Of a stretch of DNA of 64,000 nucleotides, positions 2,240 to 20,664 are shown piece by piece. The notes under the pieces are model-generated. The model searched no databases. It was given only the letters and a program-made list of their open reading frames with translations, and was not told the DNA's origin. Where the stretch lies: assembly GCA_030407315.1 (NCBI GenBank), contig JALQPE010002468.1, forward strand, positions 1-64,000, written 5' to 3'. The stretch comes from Asparagopsis taxiformis (Eukaryota > Rhodophyta > Florideophyceae > Bonnemaisoniales > Bonnemaisoniaceae). The position numbers and the translations under genes are program-made. Each line of letters starts with the position of its first letter. Position 1 is the stretch's first letter.

Positions 2240-2288
2240 GCGTAAAATTTGGTAATTTTTTGAGCCCAAAAATTACCAAATTTTACGC
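2240..2288. repeat. Palindrome P1 (AAATTTGGTAATTTTT family)
   Basis: Two perfect 21-nt arms (2240-2260 and 2268-2288) surround the spacer TGAGCCC. The arms contain AAATTTGGTAATTTTT and its complement. Related palindromes lie at 6328, 6788, 11086, 11545 and 11887. P1 sits 188 bp beyond the stop of the methyltransferase-SET gene and marks the left edge of that cassette. Confidence 0.9.
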
Positions 2289-2475
2289 ACAGAATATACC
2301 TTGTCCAACCTTATGCAGACGCATTACGTACCAAACGGGAAATTCTTCTACGCATTGCTTGCTTGGGGGGAAAGAGTACATTACGATAAAAATAAATTGA
2401 GGTATGGGAAACAGAGTGAAAACATTAATGGAGAGATGGATTTACTTGTGAAATTTGACTGTGAGAGGGTAACAG

Positions 2476-5400
2476 CTAGACAGTGAAGTAATCATGACCG
2501 TATTCGATAAACAGCTCGGATCCAGCTGAGATAGCCTCGTTAGCAGTAACACATACAACTTGGTAGGTAGACACAGAGCTCTCACTGATGAGTTCTTGTA
2601 CAGGGGAGGAGAAACTAACATTAGCAGTTCGCGACGGGCGATCGGTTCCCTCTGCTGGATCCACGAACGTTGGGTCGTTGATTTTCGAAGCAGCGCAATA
2701 CTCGAATGGAACAATGAAGATGGGGCGGCCAGACGTAGACGGAACCAAGCAGGTGATATTTGGGTCCTTGATTTTGAACTGCGTACTTCTGGAAGCGCTC
2801 AATCGAGAACGAAGTCGGACCCGTACCAAACGTCTTCAGTTTTGCTTGGTAGAGATCCTTGTAAACCACTGCCCCAAAATAGTACCCGACGATATCTCCT
2901 GGATCAATATCTACTCTTGCGAAGAGTCCATCACCAGCTGCAGGTATAGTTGAAGTTGCAACGTATACATTGTGTGCCATTGCATCAATTGATAGCAGGG
3001 TTTTACTATCCATGGTGGACAACAAGCCCAGCAGTGATTGTGGCCATTTGTGAATAGGAAGGTCTACCAAGTCATTGTGCTGGTCTGGGATGCACCAAAT
3101 GGCGGTCAGAAAGCTGATGAGGTGGGGTGGAAGTTGTGTCGAACTTGGTAAACTGGAGGGGTTCTTCGAGTGGGAATCGTCATCGGAAGTTCCGAGTTGA
3201 GAAGTGGCCAGCTGCTGCAGGGCGGGCGTGGACTGTTGAGCAAAGTTCCCAATGGAGACCTGCTGCAGAAATGCAAGATTAACTCTAGGAAGGGATAGTT
3301 CAAAGCAGTCCGTGAACTTCTCACACCCCACAAACCTCCTGTACTGACCGTGGTGCATAGTAAGGCATGCAACTGCAGTAGAGAAAGCGCCAGCAAACAT
3401 GTCCACGACCAAGTCTCCCTGGTTTGAGAAACGTCCAATGAGCTCTTGCATGAGAGCTACGGTCTTCTGCTCGGGGCGCAACGTAACCTTTTTCTTGTCC
3501 TTGTCCAAATATTTCACTGTTTCCGATGCTGTGATGCGCGGGATGTTGTCGATGACATTTGTCCAAGCCTTGAACCTAGAAGGGATGTATCCTGCATTTC
3601 GGTAGTTCACCATCCCCCAGCCTTCTTTACCCTTACCCAGCTTCGTAGCATGTACAACCAGCTCGACCATATTTAACAAACTGGTTGTAATCCTATATGG
3701 AGGCGAAGTAAAATGGGTGGGGCTCCGAGTACAGACGATAGGCTGCGAATCAACCGCGAACATAGGACTACCCGTAGAGTATTTCACTTTGCGAAGCTCG
3801 TATACCCAATTGTAGAACAGAGCAGCAGATGTGAATATGAGAACATGACCACCCTTGCGCGTCACCTTGGAAATTTCAGCTACCGTGTCTTCGATTTCTT
3901 CCTGACGGAGGACATCGTAACCAGAGTTTCCTCTGCCAGACATACGCCTAGTATTGTACGGCGGGTCAGTGAGTACCAACTGAGCACCTTCCCGGATTTG
4001 CGGCTTTCGAGGATTGTCAACAGCGTCATAGTTCTTCAAAAGGTCTCTGAAGCTGCAGTTGAAAGTATGCAGGACAGATCCTTTCATGTTGTCCATTTCT
4101 GGAGGAATCAACACTTCATCTTCTGCACGCATGGATTTTATATCAGCTCTGGCCGCTTCGGCGGTACCGCTGTTACCGCTATTCCTGCTCGAGCTTCCTG
4201 CACCAGAAGGGCTTTCATCTAGTCGTCTGCGTTTAGCATTCGGGCTCGTTCCGTTCCCGCCGGGCGGAGAATCCCGTACTGGAGAAGCTGTTCTCTCAGT
4301 GTCTCCGAACAGCTCCTCATTAGGGTCGGGCGTTGATTGTGGCTCTTCTGTGAGGCTGAATGCCGTGAGTTGCCTTTCAACCATACCCAGAGCCCGAATA
4401 GTCGTAAACCTCCCAGCATCCGGGGAACCAGTCGACGCCTGGAAGCCCTGTAGGAAAGGTATTGCTCGCGGTGAAGAAACGGTTTGGTCGAACAATTCTT
4501 TGTGCCGACAGATCGTCATTATGTGCTCCCAGAAGGACGTTGCGCAGAGGCGCATCTGAGCATCTTGCAGCAGCGTACGATGGACAGCCGCACTCGAGAT
4601 GCTTGCCGAGTGCTGCACTCTTCGAACAGCTCCTCTGCCGTGCAACAAAGTCTTCAGCTCTCGAAGCGGTGCGAAGCCCCTATTTTCCGAGTCCAGGACG
4701 TGGTACGTGAATACTCTCTGGTCGTACAGAAGGTACGGTTGCAAGAGCTCCTCGGTATTGGTAGCCCCTAGCGACTTTGCCAATACATCCCATGACTTCA
4801 GAATCACATGAATACCATATCCAAGACGCTGGGCAGTCCACGGACTATCCTTCTTGAGAAGCGGCGTGGGTCTATTCGAAGACCTCGTTCTTGTACGTGA
4901 GCGTGGCCGGGATTCTGCCTGCAACTTCCAGTCTCGGTCCATTTGTATCAATGCCATGAGAAATACAACCCTCTCGAAAGTTGTGGTAAGTCTCGGAGTT
5001 GTCCAGCTATCTTGATGCGAAGCGCGCTCCTGGGTCTGTGAAACGAAGAATTGGCATGCTAGTGATTGTCTTGAGAAGGCATCTCGACCAATCGCGGACT
5101 GGGAGAAGTTATGCTCGGTGTAGAACTCTTTCTGAACTGGAAGTGGTGGTCCAGGACTCTGAGAGTTTTTGAGTGGATCCTCTGCTGATTGCTCATCACG
5201 CTCATGGACAAACACGGGAATAAAGAAGGATACGGATAAATCCAGCAACCCACAGCTCGTGAGGAATAGATCCCATACCCGTGTGTCTATATCTACACTA
5301 CCATCTTCACCAGCAGAAATGGTGAAGTTTCGGACTGCTTGCACAATGTTAAAGGTGTGACGATGGTAGGCATACGAGAACCATTTATCCAGAACGATTG

Positions 5401-5950
5401 AAGCATTCGCTGGCAGGTCAAACTTGTACATACTGCTCACAGCCCTTCGAAACGCTGTGAGCGAACGTTCTGCAAGGGGCACATGATCCTCTTTCTTCTC
5501 AGCTTCATGCCAACAGTCTCGCATGTGAGCGACTATTGCTACACTTTCGTAGAACGGAATAATCCTTTCCCTCTCCAGGAGATGAAAGAGAATAGAGGCA
5601 AGCGTATGTGGTTTGGTAGTAATAGATTCGTAGCTCATGCGAAGTAAATATCTCGATGTGTTCCGTCGGGGGCGCGACCACACCTCCTCGCACACGTCCA
5701 TGCCTCCCACCAAGGTTACGTCACCATTGTCCGCAATGCTACCGTACAGATAGAGACGTTCGAAATCCAGATGCACTACGGATGTGACATCGGAGGCTGG
5801 GGTGCTAGCCCCTGCGATAGCAGGAATTGAAACAACGCGAGCGGGATCAACCCATAGAATGGTTCCGTTTCCGTACTTGTCAGATGGATGCATCGGCCCA
5901 TCTTCGCTGTACGTTTCGACAAGCCCGTGCCGGGGTTGTGGCTGCGCCAT
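2476..5950 (-). CDS. DPPY-class DNA methyltransferase with C-terminal SET-like domain (one frame break)
   Basis: The main frame runs from an upstream ATG at 6019; the ATG at 5950 (MAQPQPRH) is a plausible start. Numbering from the 6019 ATG, the first ~600 residues match nothing I recognise; KRRRL near 597 could be a nuclear signal. Residues ~640-920 look like an N6-adenine/N4-cytosine methyltransferase with motif order IV then I: TDPPYNTRR near 685 and VVDMFAGAFSTA near 873. After ~1015 comes a SET-like domain with GDGLFARVDIDPGDIVGYYFG. The main frame then diverges at a TTTT run (plus 2772-2775; A4 on the gene strand). Dropping one base gives YAVQIKDPN and joins the frame holding the rest of SET (KINDPTF, ELFIEYGHDYF), ending at 2476. 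The likely role is nuclear DNA and/or protein methylation. Substrate and activity are unknown. Confidence 0.75.
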
Positions 5951-6327
5951 TTCAGGGGATGCTCGGGAACGAGGGAGAAGAGAGAATGCGATAGATTGGT
6001 AGAGAAGATTGCAATGCAATCCGGCACATGTGCCTGACAGGACGGCAAGGAGATTTTTCCGCGCGCCCGCAAAATTTGAAATTGGAATTTATGGAAGCCC
6101 CGATTTCTGACGAGGGGTCGCGGGATGATGAAAGAGTTTGGAGTTTTGTTGTTGAAGATTGGTGAAGGGGTGCAATGTTTTGAACGGGTATGCAGCTTGG
6201 GCGCATTCTGTATCATGACAGTGCATTAAACAAAATCTCCACAACCTTGAGCTAGCTTCACTAATAATACAGAGACACTGCACCTAAATTCAAGCCCCAT
6301 TAGCTACAGACGGTCGCCAGACTAGTC

Positions 6328-6370
6328 TAAAATTTGGTAATTTTTTGGGCACAAAAATTACCAAATTTTA
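6328..6370. repeat. Palindrome P2
   Basis: Eighteen-nt arms (TAAAATTTGGTAATTTTT and its complement) surround a GGGC-containing spacer. It lies about 380 bp upstream of the methyltransferase-SET start, so P1 and P2 bracket that gene. Immediately outside is the 10-nt palindrome AGACTAGTCT (6320-6329), which also borders copies at 11597 and 12007. Confidence 0.9.
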
Positions 6371-6787
6371 TGCCCCACTCGTAGTGACCGTATGGCTCGT
6401 ACTCCGTCCTACTTTGTACCAGCGACCTTATGCCATGGGACACTCACCACCACGAGTAAGCACCACGTGGGCAGCACCTTCTATAGTTCGGTGCAATTAT
6501 GTTTATCGACTATTGGTGCACAACTGTCTGGATGCATCACGATGACTAGATGTTCAAGATTGTATGAGGAGAGAAGTAGACGGACATAGATGCACGTCAT
6601 GGTAATACCGGTTCGGTTTTGAACAGAGCTGCAATGCGCCGTCAATGTTCGTCAACAACCATCCAGCGAAGAAGCGTAGCATTTGGAATGTTTAGAAACA
6701 TCAGTAAAGCATGGAATGTATGAACCTGACGTAGCCTGGGGCAGGAGCGGTTGTCCAAATCTGGAACAGGTGGGCGCCGGATGGGTC

Positions 6788-6830
6788 TAAAATTTGGTAA
6801 TTTTTTGGGCTCAAAAATTACCAAATTTTA
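6788..6830. repeat. Palindrome P3
   Basis: It has the same arms as P2 with a spacer containing GGGCT. It is the inner end of repeat arm R1 and lies about 260 bp beyond the oxygenase stop codon. The 6831-7091 spacer between them holds nothing I recognise apart from AT-rich TATAGTATACTAT-like sequence near 7000. Confidence 0.9.
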
Positions 6831-7091
6831 GGACCTGAATAGCAGCTGGAAAAGACAAAGTAGAGGTACTGCTGAGGTCGGGAGCGCTCTTAGCTCATGG
6901 ATACGCACTCGTTAGTCTGGGTTGAGAGGAAAACAATATCGTAGATCACAGAATGTCACAAGTTGTCAGTAAGCAATGGGGAAGAGTATACTGTTAGTAT
7001 ATAGTATACTATGCTACAGGTGAAGCAATGGAGGAACATTAAGAAAACAATAGAAACTTTAGTTGAGAGCAACCTATAGGTGAAATCCTAC

Positions 7092-9064
7092 CTACTCAAC
7101 TGTTATGTAATCTTCACTACTATCCGGTACCTCATCGTCCGACTCAAAGTCGTGTGCGAACTCGTAAGGTTTCGGCAGACGATTGGGGTCGTCACTCTGC
7201 ACCGGTGCGTAGACGAGATCATTGACTAGCTCGGAAGAATCACGTACAGCCATGCTATGGACTCGAATGTGATGACCGTATTGTACTCCAGTCTTAGAAA
7301 TTTTGTCCTTCACGAAGTCGTAATCCTGCCATCCCGCACCAGCGTGCTCTACGTCACCACGAGTCACGAGAACAGAGAAGGGTGGAATCCAAACCAATTT
7401 TGGATGGAGATGGGGCCAGATGGCCAGGAAGGCATCACGAGGGGCGTTGAGGAAGGCATGACTCCGCGGTCGTACCAGAATTGGGGACCCAACTGCACCA
7501 GTAGCTATGAAAGAATAGTCTGGGTCTGGTGCAGGGGTCCCACAATAGCGGTTCGGTTCCTCGCGTGGCGGTCCTGGGTACGTGAAGTCGAGATGCGGGA
7601 TCTGACGAGTACAGTTGGAACCCGTCAGGAGCATCCGAAGTCCTGTCCTCCCAAAGCGCAGCTTGGAGCCTTTCTTGAATCCGTTCAAAGATGAAACGGA
7701 ATCCTCCAAGTGCAACATTTCCGCTATAATTGCGAGGATGACATCCACGGAAACCTTGTCATGAGCCAGCGACATGGATTGCTCCCCGTCGAGGTCTTCA
7801 ATGACAGCCGAGCGGGGGTCATGTACCGCTGGCGAGACGCGCCACCCCGGGCATCCTGGGCAGCTGAACCGGAGTTCAGAATCGTGCCCCACGCCCCTTC
7901 CACATTGTCATCGAACTTTTGGGCAAACCCAGAGAGCAGTTCGTGGATTGCAGACCGTACATCGGAAGCTCCTAGTATGTCTTCGAGGACGATGTATCCA
8001 TCGAAATCAATACTAGCCCTTGCCCGCTCCCAATAAACAATCCTCTCCTCGGATGTACCACCAGCCGCGGAGTTGATATCCTCCCTGATCTCCTCCACCT
8101 CCCCACTCGTCATGATGAACCCAGAGCGGTGTTCAGGATGGAGCAGACCCGAAATTGAACGCACGAACGTAGCAGCTTGGGCAAGCGTGGTCTGCTCCGT
8201 GAGAAAGGAAGGTGGCGGTGGCTGCTCGTCCTCATACCTGTGTACCCGAAACCCCTTGGAAGTCACCTTCGTCTTTGTAGGGGTTTCGCCGTCTTCTATC
8301 TCACCTTCACGCTCCTTTTCGCCAGATGAGGGTGGCTGTGCAGGAAGCGGAAGGGAGACAGGGGGAGAAGACGGGCTACCGAGAGCGATGAGTTGCTCTG
8401 CGATAGCGGCACTTCTGGTCTTGGACCGAGTCATCCGAGTCGGAGGAGGAGTGGTCGGCTCTCTCCTCCTCTTTTCTCCCCGCCGCGGTGTTCCAGAGGC
8501 ACTTTTCTTGGCTGGTTCCCGGGATATGGGCGCCTTCCCTCCCATCGTACTCCGCGGAGCCTCACCGGTCTGCTTATCCTTTTCTTCAGCAGACTCGGTA
8601 GAGGACGCGTCCTTTTCGAAAGGATTGTACGCATCACCTTCCCACGCTTCTTGTAACGTGACCCCTGCAGGAGGGGTCCAAGAAGGGGGGTCATCCGGTT
8701 GACGGCCATCGTAGCACTCACGGGAGCAGACGAACACCATGTCTCGCTCACCGTTGTTGAGGTACTTGATGGGGATGAGGTGATATACTCGAGGATAGTC
8801 GCACAGGTTGTGTACTGGCTGAATGTTGCACGCTGTGCATTTGTGCACAGCGGCATAGCCGGGGAAGCGACAGTGTGATCCAAGCGAGCAGGGAAAGGGG
8901 CGTGGCGTAGTTTCATCGGGCGGAATGCGCACAGAGCGTGAAACTACTGTCCCCCCACCACCCCCCTGCGGTTGAGAAGCTTCAACCGAGGTTTCGGGGT
9001 TCTGCTGTTCCGTGGCGATAGCAGAGTCGGGAACAGGAGCAGACGTGGGTGGGGAGACGGCCAT
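7092..9064 (-). CDS. Zinc-finger plus 2-oxoglutarate/Fe(II) oxygenase, TET/JBP-like fold (one frame break; probable fusion to ParB-like part)
   Basis: The frame from ATG 9064 has a Cys/His cluster at residues 59-117 (Cys 59, 65, 76, 79, 88, 113, 117; His 74, 85). A long basic, Ser/Pro-rich linker follows, then a folded region ending in DDNVEGAW. The frame is lost at a G4 run (plus 7887-7890). One extra G restores continuity (EGAW to GHDSELRF) into the frame that ends at 7092. That frame carries an HxD motif (HLDF), a distal His (GDVEHAGAGW) and an Arg about 27 residues later (HHIRVHSM), the usual iron and 2-oxoglutarate ligand set. The zinc finger plus dioxygenase suggests a nucleic-acid or chromatin oxygenase, but phytanoyl-type dioxygenases share the motif set. 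The ATG lies inside the 3' end of the ParB-like frame, so the two may be one protein. Confidence 0.65.
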
Positions 9065-10629
9065 GGGGGAGCGGGGGGTGAGTCGGGTTGTGAGGGGGAA
9101 GGGGGAGGGGGAGGAGAGTTGGGTTTGGAGGGGGAAGGGGGAGGAGAGTTGGGCTTCGAGGGGGAAGGGGCGCGGGCTGTTGAGTCCGGCTTGGCTTGGG
9201 AGTCAGGAGGAGAAATGTCCATCGGATTGATTTCGTCCTCAGGAAGGGGTTGTGAGGGAAGGGGAACGGGGAGAGGTTCCATGATATTCTCCCCGAATTG
9301 GGTCGGAGAGCGAGCCTGCCGAGTCACCTGTGATGGTGACTTCGGAGGAGTGGCTGATGCCACAGGGGCAGGAGCAGGAACGCTCTCTGCCGCTTTCTCG
9401 CTCTCCTTCCCCACATCTTTTGCGCCTTGACTGGCCGCAGTGGCAAGCACTGCATCGCCAGATGCTCCGGGAGGAGGGGGCGGAGTCTCACGATCCGGTG
9501 CAATGTTGAAACGTTGCAGGATGACGGTTCGGAAATCTTCTCGGCGACGCTCGTGGTTCTTCTCCTGTTTTGGCACAGGTTCTTCTTCATATTGAACCAT
9601 GCGCTTGAACACGGATTTCCAGGTCGGGATCATGTCCGTTCCATCCGGTTCGAGGTCCTCCAGGTCTGCCAGCTCGTCCGTAGTCATCCCAACCTTGGGT
9701 GCGACTTCACGGATTACCAGGTAGAAATCTCTGATGTAATTGAGATACACCCTGAGCTGGAGACCTGGGATGCGACCAAAGGACTGGAGCAATTTCACAG
9801 AGCGGTAGTGAATGCACCTAACCATCAGCTCACTGGCACGGTCCTCAGCCTTTGTGAACGCGGTGTCCTTCAGCACTAGAAGGCTGATTCCAACCTCATT
9901 TTCCTTCCTACCAGAGGCCATCTTGTACGCCTCGTACGTGCGTGGTGAACGTCTCATGTTCAGAGCCACATTGACGATAGACGTCACCGTACTCTTCCTG
10001 AGTATGCCACTGAAGTGACGCTGGAAGAACCAGTTGCACAGCTGCGAAGCTGTCATACTGGAGAGTTTCCTTTCCCCTTCCTTCGCGTACTTCAAGTTGC
10101 AGTTGTATATGCTGATGATAGCATGAATACGGTCGCGGATGGTGGTCGGTAAAACCGTGTGCACCAGTTCGTTCAGCCGCTGACTCAGGTAGAGCACGTC
10201 TTCCATCGTCATGGCTTGTCCATCTGGCCTGAACGCTTCCTGAACAGGAACGCTGTCCACAATAGAAGCCAGACGTTCAACTCCTTCCGCTTTGGCTCGG
10301 ACAAGAGCGCCACGACGATGGAGACCATCCGCGATGTAGAAGCGTGTTTCGTCGGACTCGTGGGCTAGACCAACGACAGTCACGGAGCCCACGGAAGAGG
10401 TCTGAAAGCCTTCAAGAACCATCTTCTGAAACAACACATCTACATGCGACTCATCAACCTCGCGCGATGTTTCTTCCGTGACATGAATGTCCGCAATCGG
10501 AAGTGTCATCTGCCGGAACTCGTAGTTCGCAAGCGTGCTACCAGCCCGGGGCATCGCGGGGACTGTCAGCTCCCGAGCTGGAGCGCGGGAAGATGCAGCT
10601 GCGAGACGAGAGCGTTGACGATGAAACAT
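8944..10629 (-). CDS. ParB/sulfiredoxin-like domain protein with Pro-rich tail
   Basis: The first ATG is at 10629 (MFHRQRSR); the frame stays open upstream but only from a non-ATG codon. Residues ~40-120 give a ParB-like N-terminal fold: LPIADIHV, then FQKMVLEGFQ, then FYIADGLHRRGALVRA with the DGxHR signature. A mainly helical, basic region follows to ~350, then an acidic segment. The tail is a low-complexity repeat of SPSKPNSPPP type. The last 120 bp overlap the start of the zinc-finger/oxygenase frame. Inserting one C in the C5 run (G5 on plus, 9065-9069) would run this tail into MAVSPPTSAP, making one protein of about 1,180 residues. ParB-family domains bind CTP and/or DNA in bacteria. 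The role here is unknown, and a DNA-targeting part is an inference. Confidence 0.7.
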   Translation of the reverse strand: MFHRQRSRLAAASSRAPARELTVPAMPRAGSTLANYEFRQMTLPIADIHVTEETSREVDESHVDVLFQKMVLEGFQTSSVGSVTVVGLAHESDETRFYIADGLHRRGALVRAKAEGVERLASIVDSVPVQEAFRPDGQAMTMEDVLYLSQRLNELVHTVLPTTIRDRIHAIISIYNCNLKYAKEGERKLSSMTASQLCNWFFQRHFSGILRKSTVTSIVNVALNMRRSPRTYEAYKMASGRKENEVGISLLVLKDTAFTKAEDRASELMVRCIHYRSVKLLQSFGRIPGLQLRVYLNYIRDFYLVIREVAPKVGMTTDELADLEDLEPDGTDMIPTWKSVFKRMVQYEEEPVPKQEKNHERRREDFRTVILQRFNIAPDRETPPPPPGASGDAVLATAASQGAKDVGKESEKAAESVPAPAPVASATPPKSPSQVTRQARSPTQFGENIMEPLPVPLPSQPLPEDEINPMDISPPDSQAKPDSTARAPSPSKPNSPPPSPSKPNSPPPPPSPSQPDSPPAPPWPSPHPRLLLFPTLLSPRNSRTPKPRLKLLNRRGVVGGQ

Positions 10630-10650
10630 GTTTGTGGGTGGGATAAACAA

Positions 10651-11085
10651 GCTCTTGAACTCTGAACGGTGTATAGAGGTGAAGTGGGCACGAAAAGGGC
10701 AGGGAGTGAAGAGAAAGAGAGGGCACGGGAGAGCAAGGATTGAAGAGAGAGAGAGAGGGATGGGACACTGTCACTGTGGGGAGACAGATGGATGCAAAGC
10801 GGGAGAAGCAGAGAGAGATGCGAAGAGCGAAGCTTGGAAAGCAGGGGGAGTTGGGCTGAAGCAGGGAGATGCACGATCTGAATTGCCTTTGAGGTGCTGG
10901 AGTACTACAAGGAGTAGTAGATGAGTAGCAGAGGAGAGTGACAGGAAATCGTGTAGACGTAACGTTTGGAAGGTTAACTGAAGGGGTGCGAATAAATTCG
11001 CGCCCACGCGCCAAAAGACTCACCGGTTGCGTTCAAATCAATCAGTACCCAATGAACAGTCGTGAAGAGAGTACAAGAAGGGGCG
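10651..11085. promoter_or_regulatory. Purine-rich upstream region of the ParB-like gene
   Basis: This 435-bp stretch lies between the ParB-like start and palindrome P4. It is strongly purine-rich on plus (GA and GGA runs around 10690-10830, including a GAGAGAGAGAGAG tract near 10750), which is pyrimidine-rich on the gene strand. It is the only available promoter/5' leader for the cassette. No TATA box stands out. Confidence 0.4.
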
Positions 11086-11128
11086 TGAAATTTGGTAATT
11101 TTTGAGCCCAAAAAATTACCAAATTTTA
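11086..11128. repeat. Palindrome P4
   Basis: Near-perfect 18-nt arms (TGAAATTTGGTAATTTTT, one change from the consensus) lie around GAGCCCA. It is the right border of the ParB/oxygenase cassette and the inner end of repeat arm R2. Like P1, it is preceded by GCGT. Confidence 0.9.
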
Positions 11129-11544
11129 GACCCGTCCGGCGCCCACCTGTTCCAGATTTGGACAACCGCTCCTGCCCCATGCTACGTCAAGTTCATGCAT
11201 TCCATGCTTTACTGATGTTTCTAAACATTCCAAATGCTACGCTTCTTCGCTGGATGGTTGTTGACGAACATTGACGGCGCATTGCAGCTCTGTTCAAAAC
11301 CGAACCGGTATTACCATGACGTGCATCTATGTCCGTCTACTTCTCTCCTCATACAATCTTGAACATCTAGTCATCGTGATGCATCCAGACAGTTGTGCAC
11401 CAATAGTCGATAAACATAATTGCACCGAACTATAGAAGGTGCTGCCCACGTGGTGCTTACTCGTGGTGGTGAGTGTCCCATGGCATAAGGTCGCTGGTAC
11501 AAAGTAGGACGGAGTACGAGCCATACGGTCACTACGAGTGGGCA

Positions 11545-11596
11545 TAAAATTTGGTAACTGCAGTAATTTTTGTGCCCAAAAAATTACCAAATTTTA
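11545..11596. repeat. Palindrome P5 with CTGCAGTAA insert
   Basis: This is the family palindrome TAAAATTTGGTAA...ATTACCAAATTTTA, interrupted by CTGCAGTAA. Because CTGCAGTAA is the end of the nearby 62-bp mini-palindrome, this looks like a footprint left by loss of such an element, or a deletion derivative of P6. Confidence 0.8.
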
Positions 11597-11886
11597 GACT
11601 AGTCTGGCGACCGTCTGCACCAGATTTGGACAACCGCTCCTGCTCCACATTTCGTCTAGTCGTCGCATTCGATGCTTTAATGATGTATGTTTCTGAATAT
11701 TCCGACGGTGTTCGTCGTAGTACATTGAGACTGTTGTGCACCAGCAGTCCAGAAACGTATTTGAAAGGAACTATAGAAGGTGCTGCCCACGTGGTGCTGA
11801 CCGATGGTGGTGAGTGTTTCATGGAATATGGACGGGAGCACAAAGCAGGGCGGTGTACGAGCCATACGGTCACTACGAGTGGGGCA
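11597..11886 (-). repeat. Diverged third repeat unit R3
   Basis: It is in the same orientation as R2 and clearly related to it. Both share CCAGATTTGGACAACCGCTC, GAAGGTGCTGCCCACGTGGT and CGAGCCATACGGTCACTACG (each at most 20 nt). R3 is shorter and has many differences. It lies in tandem between palindromes P5 and P6, so R2 and R3 are units of one palindrome-separated array. Confidence 0.85.
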
Positions 11887-12007
11887 TAAAATTTGGTAAT
11901 TTTTTGGGCTCAAAATTACTGCAGTAAAAACTGATCTAGCAAAGTGCACTTGGCTAGATCAGTTTTTACTGCAGTAATTTTTGTGCCCAAAAAATTACCA
12001 AATTTTA
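11887..12007. repeat. Palindrome P6 split by a mini-element
   Basis: Left and right parts of the AAATTTGG palindrome family flank a 62-bp mini-palindrome (11916-11977). The right flank continues AGACTAGTCT, as at P2 and P5. Confidence 0.85.
11916..11977. mobile_element. 62-bp palindromic mini-element (ACTGCAGTAAAAACTGATCTA ends)
   Basis: Perfect 25-nt arms, TTACTGCAGTAAAAACTGAT followed by CTAGC, flank a 12-nt spacer. A second, slightly diverged copy lies at 16799-16859. The pair flank the large transposase gene. They could be independent foldback elements, or they could mark the ends of that transposon. Confidence 0.7.
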
Positions 12008-12341
12008 GACTAGTCTGGAACTTCTCCGTGCCACTCCATGGAGTATAGTGTTTGCACTGAGTGCTCTGTCTGCAGTTGCGAAGCTGCAAGAAACACTGTC
12101 GAGTAGTGAAGGAGAGGCATCTCCTTCACTACTTGACAGTGTTTCTTGCTAAGTAAACACTATAGGATGAATTACGATTCTGGTAAAAACTATGTCATTC
12201 TTTGAAGTTTTCAGTCTTCATGTATACTCATCAGTACTTTGCACTATTTCCTGGCTTCCATGGAAATAGAGAACATGTTCTCTGCAACGACTGTAACGGT
12301 CAGCTCTGAGATCTCCCCTTCCAATTTCGTTCTTCTACAGA
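12008..12341. repeat. Nested hairpin repeat and leader before the transposase
   Basis: A 64-bp inverted repeat spans 12086-12149 (arms begin GCAAGAAACACTGTC, one mismatch). It is nested inside outer arms TATAGTGTTT (12044-12053) and AAACACTATA (12155-12164). The outer arms carry CACTA-type ends. The rest of the stretch (12165-12341) is AT-rich, non-coding leader. Confidence 0.7.
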
Positions 12342-12452
12342 TTGATAGACTATAGAGATTTGTATCCTCATAATATAGAGGCGTACAGCGTTTCCCTCCC
12401 TTCCAAACAGCTGTTTGCACCTAGGTGCTACCTCAATCCAGGTTATCGAGAT

Positions 12453-15400
12453 ATGGCTAGACCGAGAAAGTCTAGGAATGGCCCGAGGCTCCGTTTCAAC
12501 TATGTAGCCCCTGTCCGCAATCGGACTAGACGCTCGACATCCAGAACAGTCTCAAATCCTTTTGCCGTTCAGGAAATGGACTGCAATACACCAGAAACCC
12601 ATCATCCTCGCCCGGCAACAGAGTATGGTAGCACTTCGAACCCTCCCCATGCTCCCATAGCTACCAATTCGCAGACCCCAGATCCAGATCCAGTCCTCCC
12701 TTCCTCGCCTTCACAGGATATCTTCAGACCTGGGAGCAATTCTGTGGATACCACCCTCCCTTTGACGTACGCCAATAGTGGGCAGCAGAACAATATACTC
12801 AAGTATACTTCTGGAACAATTGTTCCAGAAGTTCAAAAAGCTTGTATTACTCCTAGCGACGATGATATTGTACTATCCTCCGGCAGAGACCCCGTCACTT
12901 CTGCTGCGACAGTTCCTAAACTGTGCCATCCCGCTGCTTCCGACCATCATGAGAACGTCACCGCAACAAACGACTCCGATTCGGATGACAACGACCTGTT
13001 TCTACAGGAGGAGGCAGAAGCGAAGCTCCTAATCTCTTCTCCCTTTATCATGAACACGTCCAATCCAGACAAAGCTCGCAATTACATGACAGAATGGACA
13101 ACGTTGTACGCTGTCGCCAAACTGACAGGGTCGACGAAATGCACCGCAGCAAACCTTCAGGAAGATCGCGTGTTGTTCGATTTCGCTAGACAAGGTTCCA
13201 CGAACAAACACGTTCAGCGAAGTCTACCCCATTATTCGACAATTATGCGGAAGGTAAGACCGTGGCTGTTCTTCAACGCATGGTTACGTTCGGAAACCGT
13301 ATACTTCCCTGTAAACGCAGAGCGTAGTGCAGCTCGTGTTGCCTCTTCTGCAATTCTACGAAGAAGCAAGGTCGAACAAAACAAAGCTAGTCAATCAGCA
13401 CCTGTACTTATCGTTCCACCAAGCGAATATGCACGAGCAGACATTACTGCACCACATATATTCGACCTTGCGTGGCGTGATAACACACAATTGGATGCTT
13501 CCGACTCGGATGACATACTAAGTTTACATGGTAACGTGTGCAAGTCGAAGCTAGGAAAATTCAGAGAGTACTCCTTAAAAGGACAAAACTACACGATGAG
13601 GGCGGAGGCGGTAAAAGACGGCTTTCCCGTTTCTGCTTTCGGTGGTAGTATTGTGGAACTGCATGTCACATCAGGGCAGCACGCCTCTTCTCTAGATCCT
13701 ACTCTCAGTTCCCTTTTCCAACATGAATCACTATCTTCCAGCCATGAGTCGTTCAAAGCTATCACATCTTCTTCATGGATAAACTCCGGTGCCACATTTC
13801 ATAGTAGGCTTTCGGTCTCCCCGCATTCATATGGGTCCGCCTTCATCCTTCAGAAAGAGTCGTTCCGGGAATATGCTCGGCCGGGTGATCACCTGACAGT
13901 TTTATCACCCAGTCCTGAGTGTAACCCTACTCAAAATTGTGGTATACAGTTCTTCATTGGGCTTGTCGTCAGCTCTCCCGGACCGCCAGGCCCATCACAA
14001 AAACTGCTCTTTCTCGTCAACTCTGAAGGGCATTACAAAGTTGTCGGCGGAACTCGTGCAATCAATAATGTCAAGTTATTGAAACCAGGCACGAGCCCCA
14101 GCCCCTTTCATCCTACACATCTCCGTGGGGTTCTCAGCTGCGGTACCACATACTACGTCTATCCATTTCTTTTATACTGCGATGACTTCAATGAAGCCTC
14201 TGGTAAGAAAGGGAGTGCTGGAGGATGCTATATGCTCCCAATGGGTCTTCCGCTGGACTGTCGCCGGAACAGTTCTGCTGTGCGCGTTATCGGTGTCACA
14301 GGTCCTGGTGTTAGTACAAACCATATCCTTCGACATATCTCTAGAGACATTATTCAAGGATATACGTCGGGGTTTCGTGATGTCGATCCAGACGGCAATG
14401 AATGTCTAATTTTCCTGGACTTTATTGGTTTCGTATCGGATTATCCTGCCTGTTCTCATGTGCTGGATGTCATGGGGCACAACGCAGACTGCCCATGCCA
14501 TTTGTGTTTCTTTGTAAGAGGGGGGAAATATGGGAAGAACTCGCAGTTTGGCTACGACACCCGTTTACATTCGAGCTCTGATACACACTTTCGCACATCC
14601 GAGCGAACAGCTGCTGTTCAGTCATCGGAAAGTTCTGCAAACATCTTGAAGTATCTGGGTTTGAGAACAGTGCAAAATATCACAGACACTCCATTGCATC
14701 TCATTGAAAGACTACTTCATGAAGCTAGGTCCAAAGGGCTGGTTCCAACCGGGACACCACTCGGAAACGATGGTCTACGAATCCCTGTCGTGCCTGCTAT
14801 TCTGGACCCATACCGTTCGACGTTTGTTGGAATTGACCATCTCCTCCATGGACTGGCAAAGGATGCTCTGGACAATGCTTTTTCAAGCTTGCCTAATGAT
14901 GGTGTGAGAAGGCTGGCCGACAGGTTCATGGTGGATGCCCTCCGTGTATTGGGTCTCGCAAATCAGAACAAGATATATAACTTCAACGCAGGTGAAACTC
15001 ATACAATGGGAATCTCGGACAGATTTGCAGTTCTCCTCGTCGCCGAACACTGCTTCAGGTCTTCTCTGAAATTCCAATCGCAGACTACAAGGTCATCCGA
15101 AGGTAGCGGTTCAAGGTCACTCCAGGCTTCTGAAGAGCAACGCCATCTGTCCCTAGAACTTGTTCGTCTCCTGTCCTCTATATCTGCAGCTACATACTTC
15201 CTACCACGAAAAAATATCGACGGTTCTGAGGCAGTACAGAGAGCTACAGGGAATTCTGCGCACAACGGTCTCCGTCGTCTGCAGCAGCTATCGAAAGAAT
15301 ATGCTACTCTAGTGGATGACCTGCTCAAGACTGTTCCTACCAGACAGCGGAGCACAGCGGTCTCGAAGAAACGGAAGATGCAGACAGAAGGTATAGTAAC

Positions 15401-16502
15401 GAATGATAATGACCACATTGAGATGGAAAACAAGACTGCTGGATTCCGGGCAAGGAAGATTCTTGACAATAAGCCAAACTTGCACCGTCTCATTGAGGCA
15501 TTTGAACACACTGTTCCTCTGCTCGGACACGCTCGCCAGGTAGCTGAGCTATCATTCGAAGCAACACATCAACAAATGAAAAGAGGTCTAGAGCATTCCG
15601 GAGGTGCTGACAGACAGTTGGATGCTATGTTAGCGGCACTCGGAAACTATTGGAAAGGAAGCCTCCATCTTGCTTTGAAAAGTTTCTCCAATTCTACTCC
15701 AGCATCTGTGGAGAGACAACGTTCTAAACGGTTTCTCCTTCGTGTTCTATTCGGACGGGAGCACTGTAAATCCATGGAGAACCTCCCGGCTAGTACGCTG
15801 CATGACCTCTGTCAAGAACCTCTTCTCGAACATTTGAATAGGTCTTCTTTACCATTCTTCTCTTCTCCATATTCATATTACTCGTGGACAGGAGTTCCCT
15901 CTTCATTACCACAGCAGGATTTTTCCTGTGGGCAGAATTCGGATGCAGTCATGCTTCGTGGAAAACCTTGCAAGGGAGCACGTCTCAGTTCTGCCCACCC
16001 TGCCTGTGCAGCTTCGCCCTCTGCTGCGTCTCGGGACTTTTCAAAGCCACAAGAAATAGCTTCTGGCTGTGTAGTACAAGCTTGCTACTCAGCTTCCCCG
16101 TCTTCTAGAATTCTACAGAAGACCTGTTCGCCTTCTTTTTGGGCTGTTACCACCGTGTTTGACCTGACTATTGATGGAAACATTGCTTCACCGGGAAACG
16201 TTTGCATACACGAATCTCACCAGGAAAACCTGTCTCCACCACACGCTATTGTTCTTCCAGTTATCAAGCAGAAGTCGTCCCCCACTACGTTTGCACCGAA
16301 CACCGATTCCGGCTCCTGGTTTCTCCCTCTCACTTCAGGGGTTCGTAAGGTTGGTCTCCTCCACAATTGTAGCCCTTCATTATGTTCTGTGGAGCAAGGC
16401 ACTTCGAATGGAGGAATTACGCATGGAGGTCCTTCGTTTATGGATGGTGGTTCCTTCTCTATCTTTGCAAGAGAAGATGGATATCCGCCAAGGACTGCAT
16501 AA
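12453..16502 (+). CDS. Tnp2/Plavaka-like DDE transposase
   Basis: The frame opens at 12342 from a TTG; the first ATG is at 12453 (MARPRKSRNG), giving 1,349 residues. An N-terminal disordered, acidic/Ser-rich region is followed by a conserved core. Numbering from the frame opening, residues ~610-720 contain YPFLLYCDDFNEASGKK, GLPLDCRRN, VTGPGVSTN, FLDFIGFVSDYPACSHVLDV and CPCHLCFF. This pattern resembles the Tnp2-type transposase core of CACTA/Plavaka elements (acidic residues plus a C-P-C-x2-C metal-binding motif). The C-terminal third is Ser-rich and unrecognised. The frame is intact for 4 kb, so the element may be young. It is bracketed by the mini-palindromes at 11916 and 16799. KDZ-type affiliation cannot be excluded by eye. 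Confidence 0.7.
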   Translation: MARPRKSRNGPRLRFNYVAPVRNRTRRSTSRTVSNPFAVQEMDCNTPETHHPRPATEYGSTSNPPHAPIATNSQTPDPDPVLPSSPSQDIFRPGSNSVDTTLPLTYANSGQQNNILKYTSGTIVPEVQKACITPSDDDIVLSSGRDPVTSAATVPKLCHPAASDHHENVTATNDSDSDDNDLFLQEEAEAKLLISSPFIMNTSNPDKARNYMTEWTTLYAVAKLTGSTKCTAANLQEDRVLFDFARQGSTNKHVQRSLPHYSTIMRKVRPWLFFNAWLRSETVYFPVNAERSAARVASSAILRRSKVEQNKASQSAPVLIVPPSEYARADITAPHIFDLAWRDNTQLDASDSDDILSLHGNVCKSKLGKFREYSLKGQNYTMRAEAVKDGFPVSAFGGSIVELHVTSGQHASSLDPTLSSLFQHESLSSSHESFKAITSSSWINSGATFHSRLSVSPHSYGSAFILQKESFREYARPGDHLTVLSPSPECNPTQNCGIQFFIGLVVSSPGPPGPSQKLLFLVNSEGHYKVVGGTRAINNVKLLKPGTSPSPFHPTHLRGVLSCGTTYYVYPFLLYCDDFNEASGKKGSAGGCYMLPMGLPLDCRRNSSAVRVIGVTGPGVSTNHILRHISRDIIQGYTSGFRDVDPDGNECLIFLDFIGFVSDYPACSHVLDVMGHNADCPCHLCFFVRGGKYGKNSQFGYDTRLHSSSDTHFRTSERTAAVQSSESSANILKYLGLRTVQNITDTPLHLIERLLHEARSKGLVPTGTPLGNDGLRIPVVPAILDPYRSTFVGIDHLLHGLAKDALDNAFSSLPNDGVRRLADRFMVDALRVLGLANQNKIYNFNAGETHTMGISDRFAVLLVAEHCFRSSLKFQSQTTRSSEGSGSRSLQASEEQRHLSLELVRLLSSISAATYFLPRKNIDGSEAVQRATGNSAHNGLRRLQQLSKEYATLVDDLLKTVPTRQRSTAVSKKRKMQTEGIVTNDNDHIEMENKTAGFRARKILDNKPNLHRLIEAFEHTVPLLGHARQVAELSFEATHQQMKRGLEHSGGADRQLDAMLAALGNYWKGSLHLALKSFSNSTPASVERQRSKRFLLRVLFGREHCKSMENLPASTLHDLCQEPLLEHLNRSSLPFFSSPYSYYSWTGVPSSLPQQDFSCGQNSDAVMLRGKPCKGARLSSAHPACAASPSAASRDFSKPQEIASGCVVQACYSASPSSRILQKTCSPSFWAVTTVFDLTIDGNIASPGNVCIHESHQENLSPPHAIVLPVIKQKSSPTTFAPNTDSGSWFLPLTSGVRKVGLLHNCSPSLCSVEQGTSNGGITHGGPSFMDGGSFSIFAREDGYPPRTA

Positions 16503-16798: not shown

Positions 16799-16859
16799 TT
16801 ACTGCAGTAAAAACTGATCTACCAAATGCATCTTCCTAGATCACTTTTTACTGCAGTAA
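16799..16859. mobile_element. Second copy of the palindromic mini-element
   Basis: It starts TTACTGCAGTAAAAACTGAT and ends CTTTTTACTGCAGTAA. Its centre differs from the 11916 copy. It lies about 300 bp after the transposase stop. Confidence 0.7.
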
Positions 16860-18875: not shown

Positions 18876-20664
18876 ATGGAATATTCTCTATTTTTGCTTA
18901 TCCTGTGGATGACAAATTTCACAGAGTCTGAATTTGACTATATTTGGACACGAATGAACACCCATGTTCAGTCCACGTGGAACGTCGGGAGAGGTCGTAA
19001 GTCAAAGCATCAGCCCAAGGATGTTCTTTTCATGACACTCACTGTGCTCAAGCATCCTTCGACGTGGCAGATGTCTGGTTTGATGTTTGATATGAAAGGG
19101 CCAACCTTCCAGAAGCTGATCATGGGATACCTGGAAATAATTGGGCCGGAGCTGTACAAATTCGCAGTGACAAGAATGAACTCCAAGTACACTATGAAGA
19201 AGGAGATGTTGGAAGGCCAGGTTTTCTCGACATTCGATTTTTGTCGATATGCGACAGATGTCACTTTTCAGCAGACTAATCGCCCATCTGGGAATATGCG
19301 TGAGGGCAAGTTATATTTCAGTGGTAAGTGTAGCAGGTAGAAAATCCGCTAGAGGGGCAAACCACCCGACAGGTGTCCCGAGCCTCGGTAGAGGAAGTGG
19401 TAGAGCAGATGAACCTTATAGGTACCCAGCGGGTAGTCTCGTAAGAGAGAAGGTATCGCTACCCGGAGGGGGTTGTGCGATTATAGCGCTCACGCGAGGT
19501 GCGTATTAAAGGAGCAAAGTGACGTAATCCGTCGAGCTGTTGGCTAACCCTAAGGTTTTCCCGGAGAGGGGTTGAACAATAGGTATGCGAACACTGTTCC
19601 AGTGGGTCGTAATTCCACGTGAGTTTACGTTACTCTAGAAACCGTGCCTACTGGCTATTCCAGTGGCAGTTTTATACTAAGTCTACTGTAAGCTAGGGTT
19701 AGTGGTTAGGAATAAATATCCAGTTAGTGACCAATCAGAACCTAATTACTGGCGCTCGCCTACCCACGAGGTCATCGCCAATAGGCTTACATTGTAATGT
19801 ATGGCTGATCAGCCTAAGTTAAAATTTGCCCCTTGTGGGGTCTTGGCCGGGGCCGATAGGCCCGGATGGGGTTATTTGTCAGCCTTAGCTTGTCCCAAGT
19901 ATAGGAAACAGGCCAGTTGGCTGGTGCCTTCTGATTGGCACATCCCGTAAGTGGGTACCCAATACGGAAGCGACACGGCTCGATCAGCGAGGACCGCCAG
20001 GCGGTACGACAGTAAGCACAAGCTGTAAGGATACAAAACCGAAGTGTCTGTCATTCCACGTTGATACGCTATTGGCTGCAGCAAGCATCGCCCTGGATCT
20101 ATTTCGGATATTGACATCTTCTATGATAACCTGGATTTTCACGAGAGTTCCGTGGCCAAAGGTAGTGACATGGCTGAACTTGATGATGATGGAGAATTGA
20201 ATGACACCTACCCTAATCAATGGGGCATACTCGGTGACAAGGGATATCAGGGTGGAACAAGACACATCAGGATGATTCATCCAGTTAAGATGCCAATTAA
20301 TGGGACTCTGACTGCTGACGAGAAGGTGTTCAATGAGGAGCTGTCAAGTGACAGAATTATTGTGGAGAACTATTTTGGTCGCCTGTCAAGCTTATGGACT
20401 GTCATGTCCAACAAGTACAAGTGGAACGAAGACACGTACGATCTGGTTTTCCGTACTTGTGTGGTACTGACAAACATCCACGTCAAGTTCAATCCGCTTC
20501 GTGACAGTGACCAGTCCTTCTATAAGTCGCTACAGAACTATCTTGTCAATACTGGAGACAACATCTCTCGTAAGAGGGCCCGCTCCCAGGAGCTCTATAG
20601 GGACAGGGTAAGGAGGAGGCTGGCGATTGAGTTTGATAACTTGCCTGGATATGATAGTATGTAG
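18876..20664 (+). pseudogene. Harbinger-type (DDE_Tnp_4) transposase, disrupted by a solo LTR
   Basis: The N-terminal half (18876-19328) ends with RYATDVTFQQT (first Asp of the DDE triad) and LYFSGK. The reading resumes in the same phase at 20012-20664 with ILGDKGYQGG (second Asp) and SDRIIVENYFGRL (Glu), then a basic C terminus. Joining the halves at the duplicated GTAAG reads FSGKHKL, but two stops follow, TAA at 20026 and TGA at 20062, before SISDIDIFYDNLDF. The gene is therefore dead by both insertion and point mutation. DDE_Tnp_4 proteins are the endonucleases of PIF/Harbinger transposons. Terminal inverted repeats were not identified. Confidence 0.85.
19329..20011. mobile_element. Solo LTR, 683 bp, with 5-bp target duplication GTAAG
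   Basis: It begins TGTAGCAGG and ends GGTACGACA, a canonical TG...CA pair with TGT/ACA ends. It is flanked directly by GTAAG at 19324-19328 and 20012-20016. Removing the element and one GTAAG restores the phase of the interrupted transposase, which confirms both boundaries. No internal retroelement coding sequence is present, so it is a solo LTR left by recombination. Whether it belongs to the family of the Gag element at the left edge is not determined. Confidence 0.9.

What the first reader, a model, noticed from the sequence alone, without database searches (positions are those of the whole stretch)
2240..11611. Candidate mobile DNA/chromatin-modification module: methyltransferase-SET plus ParB-zinc finger-oxygenase
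Two adjacent minus-strand cassettes encode complementary activities: a DPPY-class DNA methyltransferase fused to a SET-like domain, and a ParB-like protein overlapping or fused to a Cys/His zinc finger plus an HxD...H...R dioxygenase. Each cassette is bracketed by members of one palindrome family. The motifs are seen directly. TET/JBP oxygenases are known to travel with transposons in fungi and algae. The combination with ParB-like and SET-linked methyltransferase parts is one I have not seen described. It could write, recognise and oxidise marks on the element's own DNA to control silencing or mobility.
Basis: partly seen in the sequence, partly recalled or inferred. Interest (0 to 1): 0.88.

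Follow-up and report, generated by a model that had tools for sequence, protein, structure and literature searches.

The report
Red-algal transposon carrying chromatin-modifying enzymes
The two gene cassettes are parts of one large jumping element of a red alga that carries, besides its transposase, a DNA methyltransferase joined to a histone-methyltransferase-like domain and a ParB-like protein joined to an oxygenase-like domain, with a conserved palindrome between the genes that could let the element mark its own DNA.

Summary
The genes and palindromes are real, but the unit is larger than described. Both cassettes belong to one ~22-kb DNA transposon of a red alga (123 exact left ends; at least 34 transposase, 77 ParB, 41 methyltransferase copies scored). 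Ends are CACAGGATAAGCAA...TTGCTTATCCTGTG; 7 of 10 complete copies have a 2-bp target duplication; the transposase is EnSpm/Plavaka-like. In intact copies ParB-like, zinc-finger and oxygenase-like parts form one ~1190-aa protein, methyltransferase and SET another of ~1180 aa; the window's copies are frameshifted. The palindrome is internal, between genes, and 88-98% conserved in a subfamily whose flanking DNA is randomised. Proteins are under purifying selection (dN/dS ~0.18). Methyltransferase (DpnA/CcrM-like) and SET (EZH2/KMT5A-like) are firm; ParB is supported; the oxygenase has HxD...H...R but no family match, so TET/JBP is not supported. Giant red-algal EnSpm elements and ParB-methyltransferase genes in algal transposons are in print; I did not find the SET fusion, the ParB-oxygenase partner or the palindrome in the texts searched, but the most relevant paper was not readable. 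Likely role: sequence-targeted self-marking. Binding and activities are untested.

The parts
18886..18907 (-). left terminal sequence of the transposon (CACAGGATAAGCAAAAATAGAG read on the minus strand)
   Evidence: 123 exact copies genome-wide, control 0; three loci diverge at this point
12342..16502 (+). transposase, 1386 aa in the window, DDE type with CxxC motif, EnSpm/Plavaka-like
   Evidence: 36 matches from 34 scored candidates, a lower bound; 26 of 26 rows near a listed left end lie 2.4-6.7 kb from it on one strand; conserved D, D, CxxC and E columns in 6 sequences; relative P0013 matches PF18759 Plavaka at E 5e-4, below the curated cut-off; the window protein itself has no Pfam hit
8944..10650 (-). 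ParB-like part of the ParB-finger-oxygenase gene (separate frame in the window copy)
   Evidence: PHROG 1033 ParB-like partition protein E 8.3e-5 on the C2066 copy; at least 77 copies
7724..9064 (-). Cys/His zinc-finger part of the same gene
   Evidence: ORF; the Cys/His stretch is kept in relative P0009, 55% identical (read by eye)
7092..7892 (-). oxygenase-like part (HxD...H...R), frame-shifted in the window copy
   Evidence: at least 144 matches; H, D, H and R invariant in 3 sequences, 34% identical at the extreme; dN/dS 0.18; family unassigned
2621..6019 (-). amino-methyltransferase (DPPYN, beta class) part of the methyltransferase-SET gene
   Evidence: PF01555 E 2.9e-13; DpnA and CcrM nearest in PDB; 43 matches from 41 scored candidates
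2476..2829 (-). SET-domain remainder, out of frame with the methyltransferase in the window copy
   Evidence: PF00856 E 0.0029 here, below cut-off; E 4.5e-5 and above the cut-off in the C2066 copy
2240..2288 (.). palindrome downstream of the SET end
6327..6372 (.). palindrome between the ParB-oxygenase and methyltransferase genes
6787..6832 (.). palindrome between the ParB-oxygenase and methyltransferase genes
11085..11130 (.). palindrome upstream of the ParB-oxygenase gene
11887..12007 (.). long form of the palindrome (about 120 bp, with inner hairpin) between the divergent ParB-oxygenase and transposase genes
6374..6835 (.). left arm of an inverted repeat flanking the ParB-oxygenase gene
   Evidence: 462 nt, 98% complementary to 11081-11542
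11081..11542 (.). right arm of the inverted repeat
16799..16859 (.). lone copy of the inner hairpin found inside the long palindromes

Best explanation
SHOWN: the locus is a damaged copy of a ~22-kb multi-gene DNA transposon (CMCT-type ends and transposase, EnSpm/Plavaka-like) of a red alga. Besides the transposase it carries two conserved accessory genes, ParB-like/zinc-finger/oxygenase-like and amino-methyltransferase/SET, two further ORFs without known domains, and a ~43-bp palindrome between genes that is conserved while its surroundings are not. INFERRED: the accessory proteins are a sequence-targeted self-marking system. Element-encoded DNA-binding parts (ParB-like module, zinc finger) recognise the palindromes beside the element's genes; the methyltransferase writes an amino-methyl mark (probably N6-methyladenine) and the SET domain a histone-lysine mark there; the oxygenase removes or converts a competing mark on DNA or chromatin. 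The most likely net effect is to keep the element's own genes expressed or its ends usable in spite of host silencing, as VANC proteins do for VANDAL elements. Identity as a transposon about 0.95; self-marking through the palindromes about 0.4; anti-silencing rather than self-silencing about 0.3.
For: Ends and 2-bp TSD. Constant order of transposase, ParB-oxygenase and methyltransferase-SET in the rows that could be placed from a left end. Three genes kept together in a divergent subfamily (contig C10), whose proteins resemble by eye P0002, P0009 and P0011, which are 65%, 55% and 65% identical to the main group. Purifying selection, dN/dS 0.17-0.19 for parts of three genes. Palindrome 88-98% conserved in that subfamily while its 100-bp flanks (39-49%) equal shuffled sequence (means 43-47%). 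Of 12 oxygenase-gene copies on the contigs of the listing, 10 have half-sites on both sides, 2 on one side (C66; C98, where the listing was cut), and 0 of 12 inside the 3.4-kb body. Methyltransferase and SET families. ParB. Printed proposal that ParB-methyltransferase proteins of algal transposons bind and modify their own element (PMC12477816, passage).
Against: No binding, methylation or expression data. The ParB match is modest (E 8e-5, no Pfam hit); the methyltransferase's own N-terminus lacks the DGxHR motif seen in relative P0005 (by eye), and profile comparison of the two N-termini found nothing, although a BLASTP of one with P0005 gave E 8e-5 for a single comparison. In the SET domain the canonical NHS (recalled) reads ND in 5 of 7 sequences, NE and NS in the others. 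The oxygenase has no family and its model was useless (pLDDT 31). The palindrome could serve transposition or replication instead. TSD fails in 3 of 10. Group ii and iii elements carry the oxygenase gene in the opposite orientation, so the intergenic layout is not strictly constant. Copy counts may include duplicate contigs of one locus.
Confidence: 0.42

Rival explanations
1. Self-restraint: the same targeted marking, but the marks silence the element and limit copy number, or separate old from new copies.
For: Amino-methylation can mark silenced transposons: bdelloid N4CMT deposits 4mC at transposons (PMC8885841, abstract). The SET profile resembles EZH2 and KMT5A among others.
Against: An element gains little from silencing itself (reasoning). 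Near-identical copies point to recent spread, e.g. C644 and C2066 methyltransferase dS 0.015. The SET profile also matches KMT2 enzymes, which are known as activating (recalled).
Confidence: 0.17
2. The palindromes and ParB-like protein serve DNA handling (synapsis, replication, transposition or inversion), and the enzymes act independently.
For: ParB homology. The ParB-oxygenase gene lies between 462-nt inverted repeats and is flipped in place in another subfamily: 22 of 22 rows of at least 93% identity are + and 14 of 15 rows of at most 74% identity are - relative to the left end. Long palindromes can form cruciforms (recalled).
Against: Apart from one decayed copy (C2236), orientation is uniform within each subfamily among the rows placed, so this looks like rare old inversion, not a working switch. 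Transposition by this clade is thought to need only the transposase and the ends (recalled).
Confidence: 0.22
3. Cargo without function for the element: captured genes carried passively.
For: Large transposons often carry genes of unknown function (PMC12477816 and PMC6431247, passages).
Against: dN/dS 0.17-0.19 between subfamilies with dS 1.7-3.0 and the same three genes kept together.
Confidence: 0.07
4. One reading: two separately mobile palindrome-bracketed cassettes, the oxygenase being TET/JBP.
For: Palindromes do bracket each gene; TET/JBP genes do travel on transposons in fungi (PMC12730594, abstract and passages).
Against: One element with its own ends contains both genes and a transposase; no TET/JBP match.
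Confidence: 0.03

Closest known systems
Giant EnSpm/CACTA families of the red alga Chondrus crispus, 16-20 kb with 4-5 ORFs (Kojima 2013 as cited in PMC6431247)
   Same: superfamily-level kind, size, several ORFs, red-algal host
   Different: sequences and gene content could not be compared here; the source report was not looked up
ParB-methyltransferase accessory protein of Sola1-1_Ec32 in Ectocarpus and similar proteins of green and red algal transposons (PMC12477816, citing Iyer 2011 and Petroll 2025 on Bostrychia)
   Same: ParB-like domain with a predicted 4mC/6mA methyltransferase on a ~21-kb algal transposon; same proposed role of marking its own DNA
   Different: 'SET domain' and 'dioxygenase' have 0 occurrences in that paper's main text; a Sola, not an EnSpm/Plavaka-like, element. 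Petroll 2025 could not be read
TET/JBP-carrying transposons of fungi (PMC12730594)
   Same: EnSpm and Plavaka elements with an oxygenase gene; 2-5 bp TSD and CA..TG ends as in the CMCT clade
   Different: oxygenase here has no TET/JBP match and is fused to ParB-like and zinc-finger parts
VANDAL/VANC anti-silencing of Arabidopsis (PMC10398659, abstract)
   Same: element-encoded proteins and repeated non-coding motifs of the element
   Different: VANC is an unrelated DNA-binding protein on a Mutator-type element (recalled); the motif here is not shown to be bound
Bdelloid N4CMT amino-methyltransferase with chromodomain (PMC8885841)
   Same: bacterial-type beta-class amino-methyltransferase joined to a chromatin domain
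   Different: host gene with a histone reader; here transposon-borne with a histone-writer-like SET domain
SET-carrying HarbingerS and MuDR transposons of Phytophthora (named in PMC12730594)
   Same: SET domain on a DNA transposon
   Different: other superfamilies; fusion to a DNA methyltransferase is not mentioned in the passage seen

Membership tests
CMCT clade DNA transposon (EnSpm/Plavaka-like) | 5'-CA...TG-3' terminal inverted repeats | tested here: met
   CACAGGATAAGCAA...TTGCTTATCCTGTG in 10 of 10 copies; these were chosen by exact end patterns; the right end was first seen in C215 by searching for the inverted left end with up to one mismatch
CMCT clade DNA transposon (EnSpm/Plavaka-like) | short (2-5 bp) target-site duplication | tested here: met
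   identical 2 bp in 7 of 10 copies (flanks printed; its own True/False column tests 3 bp and is False in 10 of 10)
[quoted passage not shown]
   D614, D693/D700, C719-x-x-C722 and E columns invariant in 6 sequences; which residues are catalytic is my reading, and H(3-4)H spacing was not found by eye
Plavaka (PF18759) or EnSpm (PF02992) | profile match above the curated cut-off | tested here: not met
   window transposase no hit; relative P0013 19.8 bits against a cut-off of 26.3 for Plavaka
beta-class amino DNA methyltransferase (N6_N4_Mtase) | PF01555 match with DPPY before the SAM-binding motif | tested here: met
   E 8.9e-14; DPPYN invariant and GTxxT kept in 7 sequences; the base methylated is not testable here
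SET domain | PF00856 above cut-off and SAM/catalytic motifs | tested here: met
   24.3 bits over 22.4; GxG, two N, EL and YG columns invariant in 7 sequences; NHS not kept; activity not testable
ParB N-terminal (ParB/Srx) domain | profile match and DGxHR box | tested here: inconclusive
   PHROG 1033 E 8.3e-5 and DGLHR present; no Pfam hit; structure job never accepted
TET/JBP dioxygenase | profile match | tested here: not met
   no Pfam hit up to E 10 in 3 of 3 members (HMMER filters drop most matches above about 0.1)
2OG-Fe(II) oxygenase superfamily | HxD...H and distal R on a double-stranded beta-helix | tested here: inconclusive
   residues invariant in 3 sequences; fold not established, pLDDT 31; best PDB match ectoine hydroxylase E 0.13 over 24 residues

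The most novel reading that the evidence does not exclude
A transposon-encoded epigenetic operating system: one protein writes both a DNA base mark and a histone mark, a second ParB-like zinc-finger protein erases or rewrites marks, and both find the element through a dedicated palindrome kept between its genes, so the element carries its own targeted chromatin state wherever it lands.
Probability: 0.33. Interest if true: 0.86.

Novelty: new variant of a known kind. Interest (0 to 1): 0.6.

Why it matters
It would be a natural example of a mobile element that brings DNA-writing, histone-writing and mark-erasing enzymes together with a cis site for targeting them, in red algae, whose large transposons have been little studied. 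It gives a concrete, testable site (the 43-bp palindrome) and concrete proteins for the printed idea that algal transposons modify their own DNA.

Tried and rejected
Independent palindrome-ended cassettes: rejected, because the palindromes are internal and the ends lie elsewhere. An element end at the shared C644/C2066 break (GCAACATCACCAC): rejected; the C644 sequence continues into ORF D as in C215, and in C2066 something beginning CACTA follows, which I read as another insertion. Working inversion switch: not supported; cassette orientation is nearly uniform within each subfamily. KDZ transposase: no profile hit. Viral or prokaryotic origin of the oxygenase or ParB part: a scan of viral contigs for each, and one of prokaryote genomes for the oxygenase, found no relative. 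Structure of the oxygenase: 3-sequence model useless, so no fold search was run. Profile comparison of the two ParB-like N-termini: nothing. A 3-bp duplication was tested first and failed in 10 of 10; the 2-bp duplication was read from the same flanks afterwards. First flank comparison with free end gaps was noisy and was repeated with end gaps penalised. A first count of palindromes beside the oxygenase gene used a partial choice of copies and estimated ORF ends; it was replaced by a count over the 12 oxygenase matches on the listed contigs. Row L057 was dropped from an alignment because my frame held stops; the frame-shifted window row was dropped from the oxygenase alignment before folding.

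Literature: searches. Seen as passages: PMC12730594 (also abstract), PMC12477816 (also one part of its reference list), PMC6431247, PMC8885841, PMC3627910; abstract and outline: PMC10398659. Petroll 2025 (Bostrychia) and Iyer 2014 were not held; that the Bostrychia paper concerns giant Plavaka elements is recalled, not seen.
Full report
What is there. The window lies in an unnamed 141.5-Mb assembly of 3156 contigs. Thirteen phycobilisome-linker matches (PF00427) make the host a red alga, by inference. The five ORFs of the finding are present, but both genes are broken relative to other copies. In contig C2066 the same genes read as one frame of 1186 aa (ParB-like, zinc finger, oxygenase-like) and one of 1180 aa (methyltransferase, SET).

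The unit. Aligning the window with contigs C644 and C2066 shows homology running from window 18907 down to 2119, across the palindromes and a 1386-aa ORF outside the finding. The end at 18907 is shared by three loci whose flanks differ and occurs 123 times exactly in the genome (57+66; reversed control 0). The opposite end, AAAATTGCTTATCCTGTG, was found in C215, and a 24-base version of it occurs 86 times (55+31). In 10 copies with both ends, 7 have an identical 2-bp target duplication and 3 do not; chance would give about one in sixteen each. Some pairs of ends are far apart because of insertions or may belong to different elements (e.g. C2026, 38 kb). Copies without such insertions span 21.5-22.2 kb (C2078, C1726, C2263). 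Beyond the methyltransferase gene lie ORF D (557 aa) and ORF E (564 aa), without Pfam matches. The window's homology stops at 2119 and its contig starts at 1, so these genes are missing here. The window copy's left end stands about 1.2 kb from a DDE_Tnp_4 ORF.

Transposase. The 1386-aa protein has 36 matches from 34 scored candidates, a lower bound. Its relatives share acidic residues and a CxxC after the second conserved D; one of them matches Plavaka at E 5e-4, below the curated cut-off. Printed descriptions give CA..TG ends, 2-5 bp duplications and C(2)C plus H(3-4)H motifs for the CMCT clade, which includes EnSpm and Plavaka (PMC12730594, passages). I did not find the H(3-4)H spacing. I therefore call it EnSpm/Plavaka-like, not a proven member of either.

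Layout and subfamilies. Of the 123 left ends 100 were listed. Those with a transposase match show it 2.4-6.7 kb inside on the same strand in 26 of 26 rows. ParB matches of at least 93% identity lie at 7.5-10.3 kb in forward orientation in 22 of 22 rows; matches of at most 74% are in reverse orientation in 14 of 15 rows (the exception, C2236, has three stop codons in the match); one of 80% is forward. The methyltransferase is forward in 12 of 13 rows, reversed in one of 78% identity (all). A third group (oxygenase 60% identical) is reversed in 4 of 4 rows. So the cassettes were flipped in place in other subfamilies, which fits recombination between the inverted repeats that flank the ParB-oxygenase gene here (462 nt, 98%), but orientation is nearly uniform within a subfamily.

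Proteins. Methyltransferase: PF01555 at 8.9e-14, PHROG DNA methyltransferase at 1.1e-25, nearest solved structures DpnA and CcrM. SET: above the Pfam cut-off in the C2066 copy, nearest EZH2, KMT5A, KMT2C. The fusion also occurs in more distant relatives P0006-P0008 at 26-28% identity over about two thirds of the query, so it is old. ParB-like: PHROG 1033 at 8.3e-5, no Pfam. A methyltransferase-SET relative, P0005, has an N-terminus that matches the ParB-oxygenase N-terminus by BLASTP at 8e-5 and PHROG 1033 only at 0.093, while profile comparison found nothing. Oxygenase: HxD, H and R are invariant down to 34% identity, but no library names it. The best solved-structure match is ectoine hydroxylase at E 0.13 over 24 residues and the predicted model is unusable. 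A PhyH-like reading of its motifs is my lead from memory, not a result.

Selection. A divergent subfamily on contig C10 (loci L005, L006) holds parts of all three genes in the same order and orientation as in the window; by eye its proteins are close to P0002, P0009 and P0011, found at 65%, 55% and 65% identity to the main group. Between C10 and the main group dN/dS is 0.18 (oxygenase, 291 codons), 0.185 (transposase, 241) and 0.17 (methyltransferase N-terminus, 99), with dS of 1.7-3.0, that is near saturation. The C10 ParB stretch itself has frame breaks and was not used.

Palindrome. In C10 the palindrome is 88-98% identical to the window's four short copies over 42 columns, whereas the adjacent 100 bp (three of the window's copies compared) are 39-49% identical, no better than shuffled sequence (means 43-47%). 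In C644 and C2066 it lies between the genes. Of the 1418 half-sites only the first 100 were listed; on their contigs lie 12 oxygenase matches. Ten of 12 have half-sites on both sides of the gene, two on one side (C66; C98, where the listing was cut), and none of 12 has one in the 3.4-kb body. This is the strongest evidence that the palindrome is a functional site.

How it may work. Shown: a mobile element, five or more ORFs, three genes under constraint, a constrained intergenic palindrome, methyltransferase and SET families. Inferred: that ParB-like or zinc-finger parts bind the palindrome, that the enzymes act at the element, and that the result is escape from silencing. Self-restraint or a DNA-handling role for the palindromes remain live rivals.

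What is known already. Giant EnSpm families of 16-20 kb with 4-5 ORFs are on record for the red alga Chondrus (PMC6431247, passage). [quoted passage not shown] Fungal EnSpm and Plavaka elements carry TET/JBP (PMC12730594, abstract). New relative to what I could read: the SET fusion, the ParB-finger-oxygenase partner, the conserved palindrome and the cassette flips. The most relevant paper (Petroll 2025, seen only in a reference list) was not held, so part of this may be in it.

Noticed in passing
L064 7057-8367 (-) and 8479-9840 (-): A second, distant oxygenase gene (about 31% identical) next to another ORF, directly beside the right end of the C215 copy; looks like a different element family with the same kind of oxygenase.
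   Followed up: partly
window 11887-12007 and 16799-16859: An inner hairpin (ACTGCAGTAAAAACTGATC...) sits in the centre of the long palindromes (25 of 31 pairs among the first 100 listed half-sites have 99-103 spacing, 6 have 23-24) and also occurs alone at 16799-16859; possibly a small repeat that settles in palindromes.
   Followed up: partly
L064 3600-5294 (-): ORF E (564 aa) of the element has a stretch that looks Tudor/Agenet-like by eye; no Pfam match.
   Followed up: no
L063 1554-5902 (-); L062 about 8100: The C644 copy is interrupted by about 7.5 kb that holds a Gypsy-like retrotransposon, and the C2066 copy by something beginning CACTAGGAGGGC.
   Followed up: no
contigs C86 and C730: Two left ends stand back to back 541 bp apart, at the same spacing on two contigs (15053-/15616+ and 15631-/16194+): two adjacent elements, probably on haplotype or duplicated contigs.
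   Followed up: no
whole genome: At least 123 matches to Plavaka (PF18759), many in frames of about 1036 aa, and 36 to PF02992: other transposases of the same clade are common in this genome.
   Followed up: no
window 12086-12149: A 30-bp near-perfect hairpin with a 4-base loop upstream of the transposase gene.
   Followed up: no
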